A stretch of DNA of 55,855 bases from Oxalobacteraceae bacterium (GTDB taxonomy: Bacteria > Pseudomonadota > Gammaproteobacteria > Burkholderiales > Burkholderiaceae_D): NCBI GenBank assembly GCA_027485795.1, contig JAIXQK010000081.1, forward strand, positions 1 to 55,855, written 5' to 3'. A program made the position numbers and the translations under genes. Under the pieces are notes generated by a model, which worked only from the letters and a program-made list of their open reading frames with translations, did no database searches and had not been told where the DNA came from. Numbering within the stretch: position 1 is the stretch's first letter; every line of letters starts with the position of its first letter. Positions 7,573 to 54,578 of this stretch are shown here, piece after piece.

Positions 7573-8574
7573 TTAATTTTTAATCTCGCAGAAAAGTTCT
7601 AGCGCTTTCTGATCGCCTCCCTGTAGTGCCCATCGAGCTAGTATTCTTGCCTGTTCCTTCGAGCAATCTACTCCATCTTTGAGCAGAATCTTGATAATAC
7701 TTAGAGCATTCTGAATCTCCGAATCGGTTGCACCTGGCTTGGTAAGTACTGTCAGCACCGCTGGAATCCCATCAGAAAACAGAGCATTAGGCGCATGCGC
7801 TTTAATGCTTGCAAACAATCCGGCATTTCCTTCGTAAATTGCTCGATAGCCCAAATAAGAAAAGAAACGCCCGCGCTCGCTATGCTGCATCACGAATTCA
7901 ACAATCAACTTGATGTCGCCATCGTTGGCTGATAAAGCCATTTCATAGAGCTGGTTTTCGATAGCTTTCAATTTTTGATTATCAAGATCCTGGTGCATAT
8001 CGATTTCTTGAAGTTTAAGCGCAACGGATTTTTTATCACGCAGGAAAAGTTCTAGCGATTTCTGATCGCCTCTCTGTACGCCTCTCTGTAGTAACCATCG
8101 AGATATTATTCTTGCCTGTTCCTTCGAGCAATCTACTCCATCTTTGAGCAGAATATTGACAATACTTAGAGTATTCTGAATCTCCGTCCACTGGCTGCCG
8201 CCTTCGTTGGCTGATAAAGCCAATTGATAGAGCTGGTTTTCGATAGCTTTCAATTTTTGATTATCAAGACCCTGGTGCATATCGATTTCTTGAAGTTTAA
8301 GCGCAACGAATTTTTCGTCGTGCTTGATAATCTTGGTCGATTCCAAATTTTGATCCGGCTGAACTTGCTCAGCAGAGGTTGCTGACGATTTCCTCGCATC
8401 CTCCCTGAAACTTGAGACATGTGGATTATTGCTCGTCGAGATAGACTTCATCTGAGGCACAGCGGAACCGCGATCTGCAGGTCTACGCGGTTTCCTGGTT
8501 TTTTTTGATGCTTCAATCGGATCGCTTTGAAAGGTATCAAATTTCTCATTTGATTTTGAATTTATAGGACGCAT
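7573..8574 (-). CDS. Ankyrin-like repeat protein, possible secreted effector (paralogue of 9230-9859)
   Basis: A 333-residue protein of unknown function. Residues 1 to about 80 are rich in Ser, Lys, Arg and Pro and look disordered (KTRKPRRPADRG). The rest holds helical ankyrin-like units such as ALSIIKILLKDGVDCS. A block of about 100 residues occurs twice: LKLQEIDMHQ...LDNQKLKAIENQLY and SKEQARI-RW-LQ are nearly identical in both copies, and the DNA copies (7923-8026 and 8205-8308) differ at about three positions. ATG 8574 is chosen because GGGGGA precedes it; a longer frame from 8643 lacks such a site. No signal peptide or membrane segment is seen. The gene is visibly AT-richer than its neighbours. 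The C-terminus is cut by a frameshift. A type III effector-like role is only inferred from the architecture. Confidence 0.6.
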   Translation of the reverse strand: MRPINSKSNEKFDTFQSDPIEASKKTRKPRRPADRGSAVPQMKSISTSNNPHVSSFREDARKSSATSAEQVQPDQNLESTKIIKHDEKFVALKLQEIDMHQGLDNQKLKAIENQLYQLALSANEGGSQWTEIQNTLSIVNILLKDGVDCSKEQARIISRWLLQRGVQRGDQKSLELFLRDKKSVALKLQEIDMHQDLDNQKLKAIENQLYEMALSANDGDIKLIVEFVMQHSERGRFFSYLGYRAIYEGNAGLFASIKAHAPNALFSDGIPAVLTVLTKPGATDSEIQNALSIIKILLKDGVDCSKEQARILARWALQGGDQKALELFCEIKN

Positions 8575-48392: not shown

Positions 48393-49034
48393 TCAGGTCT
48401 CGATCAGCCCGTGCCGTACTGCAATCAGCGTTAGCTCTGCCTGGTTGGCCGCGCCAAGTTTTTGCTTCACGTTGTACAAGTGCGTGCCCACGGTACGCGG
48501 CGATATGGTCAGTAACTCAGCAATCTGATTCACCGACAAACCCTTGGCGAGTTGGATAAAGACACCGAACTCGCGCTCTGATAGCACCTCGATCGGGCTT
48601 TTCTCGCCATTAAACTCTTCCAAAGCCATGCGCTGCGACAGGCTGGCTTCGATATACATACGCCCCTCGGCGACTTGACGAATCGCGTGCATCAACTCAT
48701 CAGGCGCACTGCGCTTGGACAGATAGCCCAGTGCACCGGCCTTCAGCATGTAGCGTACATAGCTAGGGTCTTCGTGTGATGATAGACCCAGCACCTTCGC
48801 ACCTTTGTCGCGCGCAACAATACGGCGCGTCGCCTCAACACCCATGGTGCCACCGAGCGAGATATCCATCACGATCACATCGGGTTTCGCCACCGGGATC
48901 TGTTGGTAGGCGGCTTCCGCAGAGTCCGCCTCTGCAACCACCTTGATATCGTCGGTCGACTCCAGCAGCATACGAAAGCCGAAGCGCACTACCGCGTGAT
49001 CATCGACCAGCATGACGTTAATCGTTTTTTTCAT
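48393..49034 (-). CDS. Response regulator, NarL/UhpA (LuxR) type
   Basis: A 213-residue DNA-binding response regulator. The receiver domain (2-120) has the acidic pair in MLVDDHAVVRFG, the phospho-acceptor Asp in VIVMDISLGG, and Lys in GYLSKRSA. The C-terminal LuxR helix-turn-helix is LSEREFGVFIQLAKGLSVNQIAELLTISPRTVGTHLYNVK-type (about 150-190). It begins 1 nt after the stop of the sensor kinase gene, so they form one operon and a cognate pair. Confidence 0.93.
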   Translation of the reverse strand: MKKTINVMLVDDHAVVRFGFRMLLESTDDIKVVAEADSAEAAYQQIPVAKPDVIVMDISLGGTMGVEATRRIVARDKGAKVLGLSSHEDPSYVRYMLKAGALGYLSKRSAPDELMHAIRQVAEGRMYIEASLSQRMALEEFNGEKSPIEVLSEREFGVFIQLAKGLSVNQIAELLTISPRTVGTHLYNVKQKLGAANQAELTLIAVRHGLIET

Positions 49035-49035
49035 C

Positions 49036-50454
49036 TCATACCTCGCCGGTCGGACTCAGCGGCAAACTCACCCGCACCGCCAAGCCACCTTCGGCACTGC
49101 TGCCAAACACAATATCACCACCGAAAGCGGCGGCACGCTCTTGCATGCCACGTACGCCGTAGTGTCCCTCGCGCTTCAAGGACTCGGCACCTTTGCCATT
49201 ATCGGCGATCGTGATCTTCAGCAGTTGATTCTCTACGCCGATCACCACCATCGCCCGGTTGGCGCCTGAATGCCTGACCACATTGGTCACCGCCTCTTGC
49301 ACGATGCGGTAGGCAGATAGCTCTAGCTGATCATCTAGCGGGGGCAAGCCCTCACGCGCAACCGATAACTCGAATCGAACCTCTGTGTGGTTTTGCTGGG
49401 TTTCTGTCAACAGATCGCGTACTGCGTCGACCAAGCCCATGCCCTCGAGTTGAATCGGACGTAAGCGCGGTATCAAACGCCGCATGGCGTCCGAGGTCAT
49501 GCCTGCAGTATCGAACAACATATTGGCGTGCCGCTCGAGCGGGCCACCGGCGACATCCGGGTGCTGCATCATTGACTTCGCAATGCTACGAATGGCCGTG
49601 AGCGACTGCCCTAGCTCATCATGCAGTTCGCGCGCGATGGCAGCTCGCTCTTCTTCAATACGCGCATGCAGCAGCATCGTGAACTCGCGCTGCGCTTCCA
49701 GCCTGGCCTGCGCCTCGGCACTAGATTGACGTACTTGAATATTGTCCTCGACGGCTTGCGCCATGCGATTGAAAGCCCGCCCCATCTCGCCAGCCTCTTT
49801 ACCTTGTAGCGGCGGTAGTCTGACGTGATGGTCACCCTGCTCAATCTCACGCAAGCCACGCTCGATCCGCTCGAGCGGCGCCATCCATTTGCCGACTAGC
49901 CAAAACACCACCAGATCGGCCAGTAAAAGCACCAAGAACTGTGAGAACAGGATGTCGTAGAGATTGTCCCAGCCATCCAGAATGGCGCGTGTCGGGTTCG
50001 CGGTTAAAACCAGCTTCGCGCCATCCAAGGGAATAACCCGCTCGGTCAACGGTGGACGAACCAACGAGGTGTACCAGGTGGGGGCGTCGCGCCCGGCTTT
50101 GTAAAGCGATGGCGGCGACTCGTACAATAAAGTACCGGCAGTGTCATACAGGCGGATATCGTTGGCACGCACACGCCCAGTGTCGCGCAAGAATTCCACC
50201 AACTCAGGCATCAAGTCGCGCGAATAGAAGTGACTGATTCGACCGAGCAACTGGGTCGCGATGCGGCTGGAGGCTTCCATTTCCTCGCGCACGCTGGCCC
50301 GGGTGCCGGCGATCTCGACAGCGAACAGCACCGCAAAAATCAACACCGTCAGGCCGGAGAAGATCAAATTGATCTTCAGCCGCAGGCTCATGCCAGTGGC
50401 CCGGGCAGGTAGATGCTGCGCTGCAGTGTTGGCGGTCGCGCCGTCGGTGTTCAT
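49036..50454 (-). CDS. Sensor histidine kinase, NarX/UhpB type
   Basis: A 472-residue membrane sensor. TM1 near residues 28-48 (INLIFSGLTVLIFAVLF), a periplasmic sensor domain of about 120 residues, TM2 (FLVLLLADLVVFWLVG), HAMP (APLERIERGLREIEQGD), HisKA_3 dimerisation with phospho-His in IARELHDELGQSL, and HATPase_c with DNGKG and GVRGMQERA. ATG 50454 (MNTDGA) is used; the frame reaches 50547 and ATG 50391 (MSLRLK) is also possible. It diverges from the pqqA gene 235 nt away. Confidence 0.9.
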   Translation of the reverse strand: MNTDGATANTAAQHLPARATGMSLRLKINLIFSGLTVLIFAVLFAVEIAGTRASVREEMEASSRIATQLLGRISHFYSRDLMPELVEFLRDTGRVRANDIRLYDTAGTLLYESPPSLYKAGRDAPTWYTSLVRPPLTERVIPLDGAKLVLTANPTRAILDGWDNLYDILFSQFLVLLLADLVVFWLVGKWMAPLERIERGLREIEQGDHHVRLPPLQGKEAGEMGRAFNRMAQAVEDNIQVRQSSAEAQARLEAQREFTMLLHARIEEERAAIARELHDELGQSLTAIRSIAKSMMQHPDVAGGPLERHANMLFDTAGMTSDAMRRLIPRLRPIQLEGMGLVDAVRDLLTETQQNHTEVRFELSVAREGLPPLDDQLELSAYRIVQEAVTNVVRHSGANRAMVVIGVENQLLKITIADNGKGAESLKREGHYGVRGMQERAAAFGGDIVFGSSAEGGLAVRVSLPLSPTGEV

Positions 50455-50689
50455 GGTGATTTGTGGGGGCTGGACGCCCTTCGGGTAGACTGTGCTAGCG
50501 AGGCCGGATGATATCAGCCCACCCGTTGCAGCACCGGGCGCGGCCAAGGACAGTCCGGGCGGTTCATGAATTTCATTAGATTCAATTCAGACATTCACCG
50601 ATGCCGGGCAAGTCGGGTTCGAGCATGATCCACTCCACCGTCTAGATATCTGGGCGGTGTTTCACAAATCTAACTTACTGGAGATCATC
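50455..50689. other. Divergent intergenic region, likely promoters of the kinase operon and pqqA
   Basis: A 235-nt non-coding stretch between divergent units. An inverted repeat CCACCG...CGGTG (around 50636-50659) lies about 30 nt before the pqqA ribosome-binding site and could be an operator. No clear sigma-70 or sigma-54 boxes could be assigned. Confidence 0.35.
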
Positions 50690-50764
50690 ATGGCATGGAC
50701 TACACCTGCAGCAACTGACCTGCGTTTCGGTTTCGAAATCACTATGTACATCGCTAACCGTTAA
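50690..50764 (+). CDS. pqqA: Coenzyme PQQ precursor peptide PqqA (orphan copy)
   Basis: A 24-residue peptide starting [16 protein letters not shown] and ending ITMYIANR. It has the conserved E-x-x-x-Y: Glu16 and Tyr20, the two residues joined by PqqE and built into pyrroloquinoline quinone, inside the family consensus [15 protein letters not shown] is 6 nt before the ATG. Two hairpins follow, the second an intrinsic terminator, so it is a single-gene transcript. The usual partners pqqB, C, D and E are not next to it or elsewhere in the window. It lies beside a NarL-type two-component system; related regulators control PQQ-dependent alcohol oxidation in other bacteria. Confidence 0.93.
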
Positions 50765-50777
50765 TTCACGGTTTGCA

Positions 50778-50796
50778 AGCCGGTCCTAGACCGGCT
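50778..50796 (+). repeat. Hairpin directly after pqqA
   Basis: AGCCGGTC-CTA-GACCGGCT, an 8-bp perfect stem 13 nt after the pqqA stop, with no T run. It may stabilise the short transcript, as hairpins between pqqA and pqqB are known to do in other bacteria. Confidence 0.6.
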
Positions 50797-50813
50797 GAAT
50801 ACAGAATTAAGAG

Positions 50814-50842
50814 AGACGGCTCCATTGGAGCCGTCTTTTTTG
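50814..50842 (+). terminator. Intrinsic terminator of pqqA
   Basis: AGACGGCTCC-ATT-GGAGCCGTCT, a 10-bp perfect stem followed by TTTTTT. It ends the pqqA transcript before the opposing rmuC gene. Confidence 0.9.
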
Positions 50843-52304: not shown

Positions 52305-52436
52305 CCAGTTTCTCCCTAGCCTTTATGGGTCAGTTTACCGTGTCGCGCCGCCGATTTCACTTTCCAAAGCTCAAGCGGCGCATTTCTTCCATGCTTTAGA
52401 ATCCAGTTGGTAAACCTCACCCCACGGAGTCATCGC

Positions 52437-54578
52437 ATGAGCATCGTCCCCACCCGCCCCGCTCGCCGCACCTTTTTGAAGCAATCTGCTGCACTGAGCG
52501 GTGCCTTTGTGCTGGGCATACAGGGGGCCGCCGCTAATCCGGGCGCTACCGAAGTTACGCACTGGGTCGTGATCGCACCCGATGACACGGTAACCATCCG
52601 CATCGCCCGCTCTGAGCTTGGCCAAGGCACATTTACCGGGCTGGCCCAGCTGGTAGCGGAAGAACTTGCTTGCGACTGGAGCAAGGTGCGCCCCGAGTAC
52701 GCTGATGTCAACGAACATATCCGTCGCAACAAGATATGGAAAGACATGTCTACCGGCGGTAGCCGTGGTATCCGCGATTCCCATGACTATGTCCGCAAAG
52801 GCGGCGCTGCTGCACGCATGATGCTGATTGCCGCCGCTGCCCAGCAATGGAACGTGCCCGTTTCTGAGTGCCGCGCAGAGAATGGTCGGGTGATTCATAG
52901 CTCGGGCAAAACATTACGTTATGGCGAACTGGCAGCGCTGGCATCGACGCTGCCAGTACCAGAGAATCCACCGCTGAAAAATCCCAAAGACTGGAAGATC
53001 GCGGGTACCTCACCTGCACGCTTCGATATTCCAGCAAAGGTAAATGGATCGCAAATCTATGCGTCCGACATTCGCCTACCCGGCATGCTCCATGCCTCGA
53101 TATTGCAAAGCCCGGTCTTCGGTGGTTTCTTGAAGAGCCATGACGATAGCGCTGCCAAGGCGATGCCGGGGGTGAGGCATGTTGTCACGGGTGATGACTG
53201 GATCGCGGTGCTTGCCACCAACTGGTGGCAAGCCAATGAGGCGCTCAAGAAAGTAAAAGTCAGCTGGGAGAACGGCGATAAAGACAAAGTTTCCAGCGAT
53301 TCCATCATGGCCAATCTGCGCGAAGGCCTGACGCAAGCGAACGCTCCGATCGCACGCAAGGACGGCGATGTTGATAAAGCATTCGCCAATGCGCATAAGG
53401 TACTCGAGGCCGAGTTTTACACCGGCTTTATGAATCACGCCACCATGGAGCCGCAAAACGCTGCTGCGCTGTACACGGCAGACAAATTAGAAGTTTGGGT
53501 TGGTACGCAAAATGGCGAATCGTCGATTGCCGCTGCAGCCGATGCTTCAGGCTTACCACTGCAAAAAATTCATATTCATAAAATGCACGCTGGTGGTGGG
53601 TTTGGTCGACGCGGTCCGCATCAGGATTTCACCAAGCAGGCCGTCAAAATCGCGATGGCCTTACCCGGCACGCCCATCCGCTTGCAATGGTCGCGTGAAG
53701 AAGACATGCGTCAGGGCCGCTACCGTCCAGTATCGCTGGTCAAGATTCGCGGTGCGCTCGATAAAGATGGTCAGTGGCTGGGTTGGCATGTGCGGCAGTC
53801 GGATCAATCGATTGCGATTACGGTTTACCCGCAATTCATCAAAGACGGTGTTGACCAGATTAATACCCGGGTTTTTAGGGATAACCCCTACGCCGTGCCG
53901 AATTTCACCAACGAGTATGTGATGCGGGATGTTCACGTACCCCCAGGGTTTTGGCGCGCGGTTGCACATACCAATAATCCGTTCTACCGCGAATGCTTTA
54001 TTGATGAACTTGCACATGCCGCTGGCAAAGATCCGGTGCAATTCCGTCGTCCGCTATTACAAGGCAAAAAAGACCTGGCGGTACTAGATGCTGTAGCTAA
54101 GGCCATCGGCTGGGATAAAGCGCCGGCTGCTGGTATCCATCGAGGCATCGCCGTGGTTGACTCTTATGGCAGTTTTACTGCCGCCGCGGTCGAACTCAAA
54201 CTTACCAATGGCAAAGAGATCGAGGTCAAACGCGTTGCGGTGGCGATCGATAGCGGCCATGTAGTGCATCCGGACGCAGTGAAGGCCCAGATTGAAGGCG
54301 GTGTGTTCTGGGGTCTTTCAGCGATCATGGGTGAAGAGATCACGATCGAAAACGGCGCAGTAAAACAGTCGAATTTCCATGACTATCCACTAGCTCGCAT
54401 TAACGTCAAACCAGAAATTATTCCGGTGCTGGTTCCCACCTTCGACTTCTGGGGTGGCGTGGGTGAGCCGCCGATCGGTGGCGTCATTCCTGCGATGGTG
54501 AATGCACTGTTCTCGGCGACCGGCAAGCGTATCCGCTCGCTACCCCTCAAACACCACGGCTTCCGCTACAAAACCTGA
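52437..54578 (+). CDS. Molybdenum hydroxylase large subunit, isoquinoline 1-oxidoreductase beta-like
   Basis: A 713-residue exported molybdoenzyme subunit. The N-terminus carries a twin-arginine signal (RRTFLKQSAALSGAFVLG), so it is exported folded. The molybdenum-cofactor motifs are SELGQGTFTGLAQLVAEEL, GGSRGIRDSHDYVRKGGAAAR, GGGFGRRGPHQDF and the C-terminal GVGEPPIGGVIPAMVNAL with the likely catalytic Glu. Start ATG 52437 is preceded by GGAG. The small 2Fe-2S subunit (IorA-like), usually adjacent, is missing on both sides. Substrate is unknown; aldehydes or N-heterocycles are known for relatives. Confidence 0.9.
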   Translation: MSIVPTRPARRTFLKQSAALSGAFVLGIQGAAANPGATEVTHWVVIAPDDTVTIRIARSELGQGTFTGLAQLVAEELACDWSKVRPEYADVNEHIRRNKIWKDMSTGGSRGIRDSHDYVRKGGAAARMMLIAAAAQQWNVPVSECRAENGRVIHSSGKTLRYGELAALASTLPVPENPPLKNPKDWKIAGTSPARFDIPAKVNGSQIYASDIRLPGMLHASILQSPVFGGFLKSHDDSAAKAMPGVRHVVTGDDWIAVLATNWWQANEALKKVKVSWENGDKDKVSSDSIMANLREGLTQANAPIARKDGDVDKAFANAHKVLEAEFYTGFMNHATMEPQNAAALYTADKLEVWVGTQNGESSIAAAADASGLPLQKIHIHKMHAGGGFGRRGPHQDFTKQAVKIAMALPGTPIRLQWSREEDMRQGRYRPVSLVKIRGALDKDGQWLGWHVRQSDQSIAITVYPQFIKDGVDQINTRVFRDNPYAVPNFTNEYVMRDVHVPPGFWRAVAHTNNPFYRECFIDELAHAAGKDPVQFRRPLLQGKKDLAVLDAVAKAIGWDKAPAAGIHRGIAVVDSYGSFTAAAVELKLTNGKEIEVKRVAVAIDSGHVVHPDAVKAQIEGGVFWGLSAIMGEEITIENGAVKQSNFHDYPLARINVKPEIIPVLVPTFDFWGGVGEPPIGGVIPAMVNALFSATGKRIRSLPLKHHGFRYKT

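What the first reader, a model, noticed from the sequence alone, without database searches (positions are those of the whole stretch)
50690..50842. Orphan pqqA gene of 24 codons with its own terminator
The peptide carries the PqqA consensus with Glu16 and Tyr20, a proper ribosome-binding site, and a hairpin plus an intrinsic terminator after it. No pqqBCDE is beside it, so it is a separate transcription unit. Either PQQ synthesis genes are elsewhere and this is a dedicated or extra precursor gene, or the peptide is kept by a host that lacks the rest of the pathway. Such short genes are commonly missed in annotation.
Basis: partly seen in the sequence, partly recalled or inferred. Interest (0 to 1): 0.7.

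Follow-up and report, generated by a model that had tools for sequence, protein, structure and literature searches.

The report
Solo gene for PQQ precursor peptide
A tiny gene for the peptide from which bacteria build the redox cofactor PQQ stands alone in this genome, away from the other PQQ genes, beside a sensor-regulator pair and a conserved putative control site, which suggests that the cell sets PQQ output by how much precursor it makes.

Summary
Window 50690-50764 encodes a 24-residue PqqA (Glu16, Tyr20; TIGR02107 39.6 bits, cutoff 20) with a GGAG site, a hairpin and an intrinsic terminator. It is the only pqqA found in the genome. pqqBCDE are intact on another contig, without a pqqA, and one complete PQQ-dependent alcohol dehydrogenase is present, so the 'host lacks the pathway' option fails. 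Solo or extra pqqA genes are in print (Methylosinus OB3b; Methylophilaceae), so the kind is known. Three things go further. (1) In the 19 genus genomes where pqqA was found, a copy lies divergently beside a histidine kinase. (2) A palindrome, CTCATGA-WWW-TCATGAG, lies upstream of pqqA across the order (60 of 74 copies with at most 1 mismatch; 33 of the 44 not used to write the pattern; 0 of 74 shuffles). (3) The genus's pqqBCDE group with its own family, its kinase (100% support) and regulator (73-77%) with other families. I conclude that a regulated pqqA module probably displaced the native pqqA. The message is predicted to start in a stem-loop and end in a terminator: a short, protected transcript. 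Regulator binding, transcription and transfer are inferred, not shown.

The parts
50690..50764 (+). pqqA, PQQ precursor peptide, 24 aa
   Evidence: TIGR02107 39.6 bits, PF08042 40.7 bits; only PqqA match in the genome; synonymous-only variation in 18 of 19 variable codons
50563..50579 (.). palindrome TTCATGAATTTCATTAG, putative binding site of the adjacent response regulator
   Evidence: only exact match in the 3.24 Mb genome; conserved upstream of pqqA across the order
50593..50604 (+). conserved block ATTCACCGATGC between palindrome and -10-like element, over the expected -35 region
   Evidence: several invariant columns of alignment A3
50624..50629 (+). putative -10 hexamer CATGAT, 61 nt after the start of the palindrome; not picked up by the sigma-70 consensus scan
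   Evidence: CATNAT at offset 61 or 62 from the palindrome in 21 of 23 genus copies, unrestricted search
50636..50659 (+). 10-bp stem-loop that begins after 6 unpaired nt following the -10-like element, about at the predicted transcript start
   Evidence: predicted folds; a stem in this place is predicted with differing sequence in most genus copies
50680..50683 (+). ribosome-binding site GGAG
   Evidence: sequence; GGAGAT invariant in 19 aligned copies
50778..50796 (+). first 3' hairpin
   Evidence: 3 of 6 consensus pairs have changes on both sides
50814..50841 (+). intrinsic terminator, stem 50814-50836 plus T run
49036..50391 (-). sensor histidine kinase (HAMP, HisKA_3, HATPase_c), divergent from pqqA
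   Evidence: Pfam (on the longer 49036-50547 frame); homologue beside pqqA in 18 of 18 other genus genomes with pqqA; start at ATG 50391 chosen from relatives
48393..49034 (-). NarL/GacA-type response regulator (receiver + LuxR HTH)
   Evidence: Pfam, NCBIfam (best matches below their cutoffs); 90-99% identical in the 6 genus relatives compared

Best explanation
This is a working, stand-alone precursor gene for PQQ. Its short transcript supplies PqqA, which is consumed one molecule per PQQ (general knowledge), to PqqD/PqqE and the other Pqq enzymes encoded on another contig. It belongs to a module with a divergent histidine kinase-response regulator pair; when the kinase is stimulated, the regulator is proposed to bind the palindrome about 65 bp upstream of the predicted start and turn on pqqA, and recognisably little else. 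The message is predicted to begin with a stem-loop and to end in a hairpin plus terminator, which should make it abundant and stable. In evolution, this module probably entered an ancestor of the genus from another family and displaced the native pqqA in front of pqqBCDE. Shown: the gene, the absence of a linked pqqA, the conserved kinase, the motif statistics and the discordant trees. Inferred: transcription, regulator binding, RNA stability, the signal sensed and the direction of transfer.
For: Gene identity and uniqueness. pqqBCDE intact on C167: TIGR02108 417.7, TIGR02111 342.3, TIGR03859 107.8, TIGR02109 536.3 bits, all above cutoff; PQQ-dehydrogenase on C178 558.4 bits against 480.05. 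pqqC in 18 of 18 genus genomes searched. Kinase beside pqqA in 18 of 18 relatives' loci and in the window. Palindrome upstream of 60 of 74 pqqA copies at <=1 mismatch, against 4 of 71 with enough downstream sequence and 0 of 74 shuffled; of the 44 copies not used to write the pattern, 21 are exact and 33 within 1 mismatch. 18 of 20 exact sites in 18 genus genomes precede a pqqA; reversed-pattern control 0 (against the coordinates). Motif with <=1 mismatch in 29 of 33 genomes with a kinase homologue at E < 1e-37 and 0 of 10 without. CATNAT at offset 61 or 62 from the palindrome in 21 of 23 genus copies. 5' stem-loop, 3' hairpin and terminator segments fold better than shuffles on average while control and coding segments do not. 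The pqqBCDE tree puts the genus with G026 (support 86) and with G026+G031+G023 (94) of its own family, and the AU test rejects grouping with G089/G294, whereas the kinase tree joins the genus to G089 and G294 (100) and the regulator tree joins it to G089 (77), then G294 (73). No kinase orthologue was seen in 12 other genomes of the family. In print, the solo pqqA of Methylosinus OB3b is listed at RPKM 11,857 and 13,927 against 161-372 for pqqB, pqqC/D and pqqE (PMC3615186, passages).
Against: No expression or binding data. The pattern was written after seeing genus copies and a few others. The kinase-motif association follows clades, the E-value cut of 1e-37 was set after seeing the table, and 4 of 33 kinase-bearing genomes lack a site within 1 mismatch at the copies examined, among them G294, whose pqqA lies near the kinase (2 mismatches). 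The SH test does not reject grouping the genus with the whole kinase clade (p 0.096; AU 4e-4); the regulator tree's support is moderate. PqqA is too short for a tree, and the peptide of G294, one of the two nearest kinase relatives, differs from the genus's at 6 positions. The sigma-70 scan did not find the -10-like element and named another weak site at 50661-50688 (2 found, 1.1 expected). RNAalifold found no consensus fold for the 5' region. Second genus copies show weaker 5' structure (0 of 7 with z < -2). No PqqF above cutoff was found, so the peptidase step is unassigned. The assembly is 183 contigs at 95% completeness, so a second pqqA could be missing, and G004 and G015 of the genus show no pqqA at all.
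Confidence: 0.7

Rival explanations
1. Vertical operon split: the ancestor had pqqABCDE beside the kinase-regulator pair, pqqBCDE were moved away by rearrangement in the genus, and the rest of the family lost the kinase-regulator pair. Function is the same, without transfer.
For: In G046, G089 and G196 a divergent kinase lies 227-283 nt (match edges) from a pqqA that heads pqqBCDE, the same geometry as in the window at 269 nt. G079 and G123 show a comparable split, with pqqC 39-46 kb from both pqqA copies. The SH test does not reject a joint clade.
Against: The genus pqqBCDE group with G026, G031 and G023 of the same family, which have pqqA at the operon head, no palindrome and no kinase orthologue. 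The genus peptide differs from those of G196, G089 and G046 at 1, 2 and 3 positions but from those of G026, G031 and G023 at 4 each; G294 differs at 6, so this is weak.
Confidence: 0.25
2. The palindrome is bound by some other regulator, and the neighbouring kinase-regulator pair controls something else.
For: No binding data. G320 keeps the kinase-regulator pair with no pqqA or pqqC match. In G055 two pqqA copies on a contig with no listed kinase match also carry the site.
Against: Site and kinase homologue co-occur, 29 of 33 against 0 of 10. 18 of 20 exact genus-wide sites are upstream of pqqA. A dyad suits a LuxR/NarL-type dimer (general knowledge).
Confidence: 0.2
3. A vestigial or silent pqqA; PQQ is imported or made from an unassembled second copy.
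For: The assembly is incomplete (95%). Eight genus genomes have a second pqqA.
Against: The peptide is invariant from residue 3 on in 19 genus copies, with only synonymous change in 18 of 19 variable codons. RBS, promoter-like elements and terminator are kept. pqqBCDE are intact. No pqqA remnant was recognised upstream of pqqB in 14 loci (one, L063, scored 30 against a shuffle maximum of 28).
Confidence: 0.05

Closest known systems
Unlinked pqqA of Methylosinus trichosporium OB3b (PMC3615186, passages seen)
   Same: A pqqA absent from the annotation, away from pqqBCDE, described as highly expressed while the rest of the pathway is modest to low
   Different: An alphaproteobacterial methanotroph; the passages seen mention no adjacent kinase pair or palindrome
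Multiple pqqA copies of Methylophilaceae (PMC4109929, passages seen)
   Same: 3-12 pqqA copies with typically one copy of the remaining genes, so most copies must be away from them (my inference)
   Different: Extra copies there; here pqqA copies were found only away from pqqBCDE in the genus genomes inspected (one exception, G010)
pqqABCDE operon beside a kinase-regulator pair in G046, G089, G196
   Same: Divergent kinase, homologous regulator, similar PqqA, palindrome upstream of pqqA
   Different: There pqqA heads pqqBCDE; in the window pqqBCDE are on another contig and group with another clade
AgmR/ErbR and PedR2/ExaE regulation of PQQ and PQQ-dehydrogenase genes in Pseudomonas (PMC12997753, passages seen)
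   Same: LuxR-type regulators; AgmR controls PQQ supply at a distance from the dehydrogenase genes
   Different: AgmR acts on the pqqFABCDE operon and several ped genes; here the recognisable target is pqqA alone. Orthology to AgmR was not tested

Membership tests
PqqA (TIGR02107 / PF08042) | score above the curated cutoff | tested here: met
   39.6 against 20 and 40.7 against 21.1 bits
PqqA (TIGR02107 / PF08042) | conserved Glu and Tyr, joined to make PQQ, with three residues between them | tested here: met
   Glu16 and Tyr20; role from PMC12997753 passages and general knowledge
PqqA (TIGR02107 / PF08042) | PqqB, C, D and E in the same organism | tested here: met
   all four on C167 above cutoff
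PqqA (TIGR02107 / PF08042) | gene linked to pqqBCDE (usual, not required) | tested here: not met
   different contigs; no linked copy also in 12 of 58 order genomes with both genes (own genome and G014 are among the 12)
PqqA (TIGR02107 / PF08042) | peptide converted to PQQ | not testable with these tools
   needs biochemistry
PQQ peptidase PqqF (TIGR02110) | score above cutoff in the own genome | tested here: not met
   best 54.2 bits against 320
NarL/FixJ-type two-component regulator of PQQ supply | receiver plus LuxR-type HTH beside a HisKA_3 kinase | tested here: met
NarL/FixJ-type two-component regulator of PQQ supply | regulator binds and controls pqqA | tested here: inconclusive
   motif location and co-occurrence only

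The most novel reading that the evidence does not exclude
A cofactor pathway whose substrate gene was swapped: a foreign pqqA came in with its own kinase-regulator pair and replaced the native pqqA, while the native pqqBCDE stayed. As a result the two-component system controls the ribosomal precursor alone, and the cofactor's output is set by transcription of a roughly 200-nt message that begins and ends in hairpins.
Probability: 0.42. Interest if true: 0.65.

Novelty: new variant of a known kind. Interest (0 to 1): 0.5.

Why it matters
The conserved palindrome and adjacent sensor kinase give a concrete, testable handle on what signal sets PQQ production in this order (Burkholderiales, judging from the named relatives). 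The discordant trees suggest that a precursor gene can be replaced independently of its processing enzymes. The gene is also easy to miss: scans that look only beside pqqBCDE would call this genus unable to make PQQ.

Tried and rejected
Host without the PQQ pathway: rejected. A pqqA remnant in front of pqqB: none recognised in 14 genus loci; 13 scored within their 20 shuffles, L063 scored 30 against a shuffle maximum of 28. Consensus RNA fold of the 5' region by RNAalifold: no pairs on the MAFFT alignment; the 3' region gave only the first hairpin; single-sequence folds with shuffles were used instead. Regulator site at pqqB of the own genome: the C167 match at 7704-7720 has 2 mismatches and overlaps the pqqB start codon, so I count it as chance (where the reversed control gave 2 hits against 6). 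Foldseek of the kinase model: the rows shown are histidine kinases or photoreceptor kinases (WalK, DesK, VraS and others), so the sensor was not identified. Motif search in papers: uninformative, 4,073 papers held at least one term, the ten listed only the shortest one. Literature searches for unlinked pqqA: one search gave 2 papers, none; the precedents came. The 1995 M. extorquens pqqD paper is not held and was seen only as a citation and table note.

Errors of mine found on checking: the script did not read the letter R, so its printed mismatches are one too many; counts are taken. The -10 search was confined to offsets 58-65, so I repeated it without limits (21 of 23 at 61 or 62, none in L015 and L024, one extra hit at 41). 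Support values printed came after midpoint rooting, which shifts labels; those given here are read from the unrooted trees, which lowered the regulator-tree support to 77 and 73. I lowered confidence from 0.72 to 0.70, the novel case from 0.45 to 0.42, and raised the vertical rival from 0.22 to 0.25 for that reason.

Rows dropped before counts: I pasted 59 of the 72 pqqC rows, leaving out one fragment of G082 and 12 rows with E of 4e-8 or weaker, and 70 of the kinase rows, whose listing was itself cut, so the kinase-near-pqqA count is a lower bound. In one search one copy (L040) was skipped for short upstream sequence, and 3 of 74 had too little downstream sequence. In one search, 43 genomes whose pqqA loci I held were used, not all genomes with pqqA, and for several not every copy. 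In one search one genome (G142) was left out of the tree for having fewer than 3 genes.

Full report
The gene. Window 50690-50764 encodes [24 protein letters not shown]. It is PqqA by two curated models (TIGR02107 39.6 bits, cutoff 20; PF08042 40.7, cutoff 21.1), with Glu16 and Tyr20. A search of the window's own genome (3.24 Mb, 183 contigs, 95% complete) finds this one PqqA and no other. Downstream lie a hairpin and a terminator.

The rest of the pathway. PqqD is found once, on contig C167; the stretch around it holds pqqB, pqqC, pqqD and pqqE in one row, all above their NCBIfam cutoffs, and a convergent ABC transporter whose ATPase matches TIGR03864, 'PQQ-dependent alcohol dehydrogenase system' (306.3 bits, cutoff 302.25). 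No pqqA was found there and no remnant was recognised. One complete PQQ-dependent alcohol dehydrogenase (C178, TIGR03075 558.4 bits, cutoff 480.05) and two fragments at contig ends (C65, C44) were found. No PqqF reached its cutoff. PQQ synthesis and use are therefore likely.

The genus. Among 56 genomes (own included), 28 have PqqA; in the genus it is 19 of 21, 8 of them with two copies. pqqC is in 18 of 18 genus genomes searched. A homologue of the window's kinase lies beside pqqA in 18 of 18 relatives' loci. Seven second copies were inspected (genomes G002, G006, G007, G012, G013, G017, G018): each carries the same peptide and a hairpin with T run behind it; in the six scanned with Pqq proteins no pqqBCDE lie near, the seventh (L042) was judged from its ORF list only. 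The exception is the eighth genome, G010, which holds a complete pqqABCDE operon of a different type, either contamination or a replacement. Named records close to the window's kinase are six MAGs labelled Oxalobacteraceae, Burkholderiaceae or Betaproteobacteria.

How unusual is an unlinked pqqA? In 300 genomes of the order, 62 have PqqA and 58 of these have a clear PqqC (rows filtered as told). In 46 of 58 a pqqA lies within 2.5 kb of pqqC; in 12 of 58 none does; 91 of 137 copies are unlinked by that measure. Some of these may be contig ends. Unlinked copies are thus common here. In print, Methylophilaceae are said to carry 3-12 pqqA with mostly single copies of the rest (PMC4109929, passages), and in Methylosinus OB3b the solo pqqA was missed by annotation and is listed at RPKM 11,857 and 13,927 against 161-372 for pqqB, pqqC/D and pqqE (PMC3615186, passages). 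In M. aquaticum 22A, pqqA1A2 and pqqBCDE respond differently to methanol and metals (PMC5784242, passages).

The control site. Aligning the region upstream of pqqA shows a near-palindrome, TTCATGAWWWTCATKAG. The looser pattern YTMATGAWWWTCATKAR was written from genus copies and a few others. In 74 distinct pqqA copies fetched, its best match in -260 to -40 is exact in 45 and has at most 1 mismatch in 60; downstream, 4 of 71 testable copies reach 1 mismatch; shuffled upstream sequence gives 0 of 74. Of the 44 copies not used to write the pattern, 21 are exact and 33 within 1 mismatch. In the own genome the only exact site is the one at pqqA (6 sites at up to 2 mismatches, reversed control 2). 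Over 18 genus genomes there are 20 exact sites, 18 of them upstream of a pqqA copy by the coordinates; the other two are in G009, about 190 nt past the pqqA stop, and near a contig start in G005; the reversed-pattern control gives 0. Two of the three genomes without an exact site (G004, G015) have no detected pqqA; the third (G014) has a 1-mismatch site. Across 43 genomes, a site with at most 1 mismatch is present in 29 of 33 with a kinase homologue at E < 1e-37 and in 0 of 10 without (Fisher p 5e-7); the cut was set after seeing the values and the genomes are not independent.

Promoter and message. In 23 genus copies, a CATNAT hexamer lies 61 or 62 nt after the start of the palindrome in 21, with one further CATNAT elsewhere and none in two, while the distance from the hexamer to ATG varies from 55 to 79. 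In 14 of 19 kinase-side copies the first paired base of the 5' stem-loop follows 6 or 7 unpaired nt after the hexamer, about where transcription should start, so the RNA is predicted to begin with the stem-loop. The sigma-70 consensus scan did not report this hexamer and gave another site, 50661-50688. Against shuffles, mean z is -2.20 for the 5' segment (11 of 19 below -2), -2.73 for the first 3' segment (12 of 19) and -3.97 for the terminator segment (16 of 18), compared with 0.02 for an upstream control and 0.29 for the coding sequence. That terminal stem-loops stabilise mRNA is general knowledge recalled, not tested here.

Origin. A tree of PqqB+C+D+E (999 columns, 31 genomes) groups the genus with G026 (86) and with G026, G031 and G023 (94) of its own family, whose pqqA heads the operon without a palindrome. 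Forcing the genus to group with G089 and G294 is rejected (AU p about 5e-188; 7e-39 when G248, sister of G294, is added), and with the whole kinase clade too (AU 4e-4, but SH 0.096). The kinase tree joins the genus to G089 and G294 (100); the regulator tree joins it to G089 (77) and then G294 (73). Twelve other genomes of the family show only kinase matches of E 8.9e-37 or weaker that start at residue 116 or later and so leave out most of the sensor part. The peptide differs from those of G196, G089, G046 and G294 at 1, 2, 3 and 6 positions and from those of G026, G031 and G023 at 4 each. I read this as displacement of the native pqqA by a module of regulator, kinase and pqqA; a vertical split with losses remains possible.

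Verdict. The gene is real and of a known kind. What I did not find in print, with searches (open-licence papers only, most results seen as listings), is the palindrome tied to pqqA across the order, a kinase-regulator pair whose recognisable target is the precursor gene alone, and the mixed origin of precursor and enzymes.

Noticed in passing
L003 7984-8931 (G000 C167), and loci L054, L055, L112, L116, L118: An alpha/beta hydrolase (Pfam Abhydrolase_1 / S33; prolyl-iminopeptidase-like by recall) lies divergent to pqqB in the genus and beside the kinase-regulator pair in other families, while no PqqF passes its cutoff; a candidate for the peptidase step of PQQ synthesis.
   Followed up: partly
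L047 1529-4704 (G010 C45): One genus genome holds a complete pqqABCDE operon of a different type (peptide MKWEQPTATDLRF...) as its only pqqC; contamination or a whole-operon replacement.
   Followed up: partly
L040-L043, L045, L046: Second pqqA copies of the genus share neighbours in varying combinations; by Pfam in L043 these are an FAD oxidoreductase (DAO), a multicopper oxidase and a SET-domain protein.
   Followed up: partly
L113 5322-7318 (G320): A genome with the kinase-regulator pair but no pqqA or pqqC match; the pair may have another target or be a relic.
   Followed up: no
L117 6642-6658 (G079): The palindrome (1 mismatch) also occurs about 140 nt upstream of a pqqB that has no pqqA in front of it.
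   Followed up: no
L080 5509-5525 (G009), L024 and L025 downstream of pqqA: A second exact palindrome about 190 nt beyond the pqqA stop in G009, and 1-mismatch sites downstream of pqqA in G014 and G002; possibly promoters of other genes.
   Followed up: partly
window 52407-54578: Molybdopterin-binding oxidoreductase (MoCoBD_1, MoCoBD_2); its partner subunit was not looked for.
   Followed up: no
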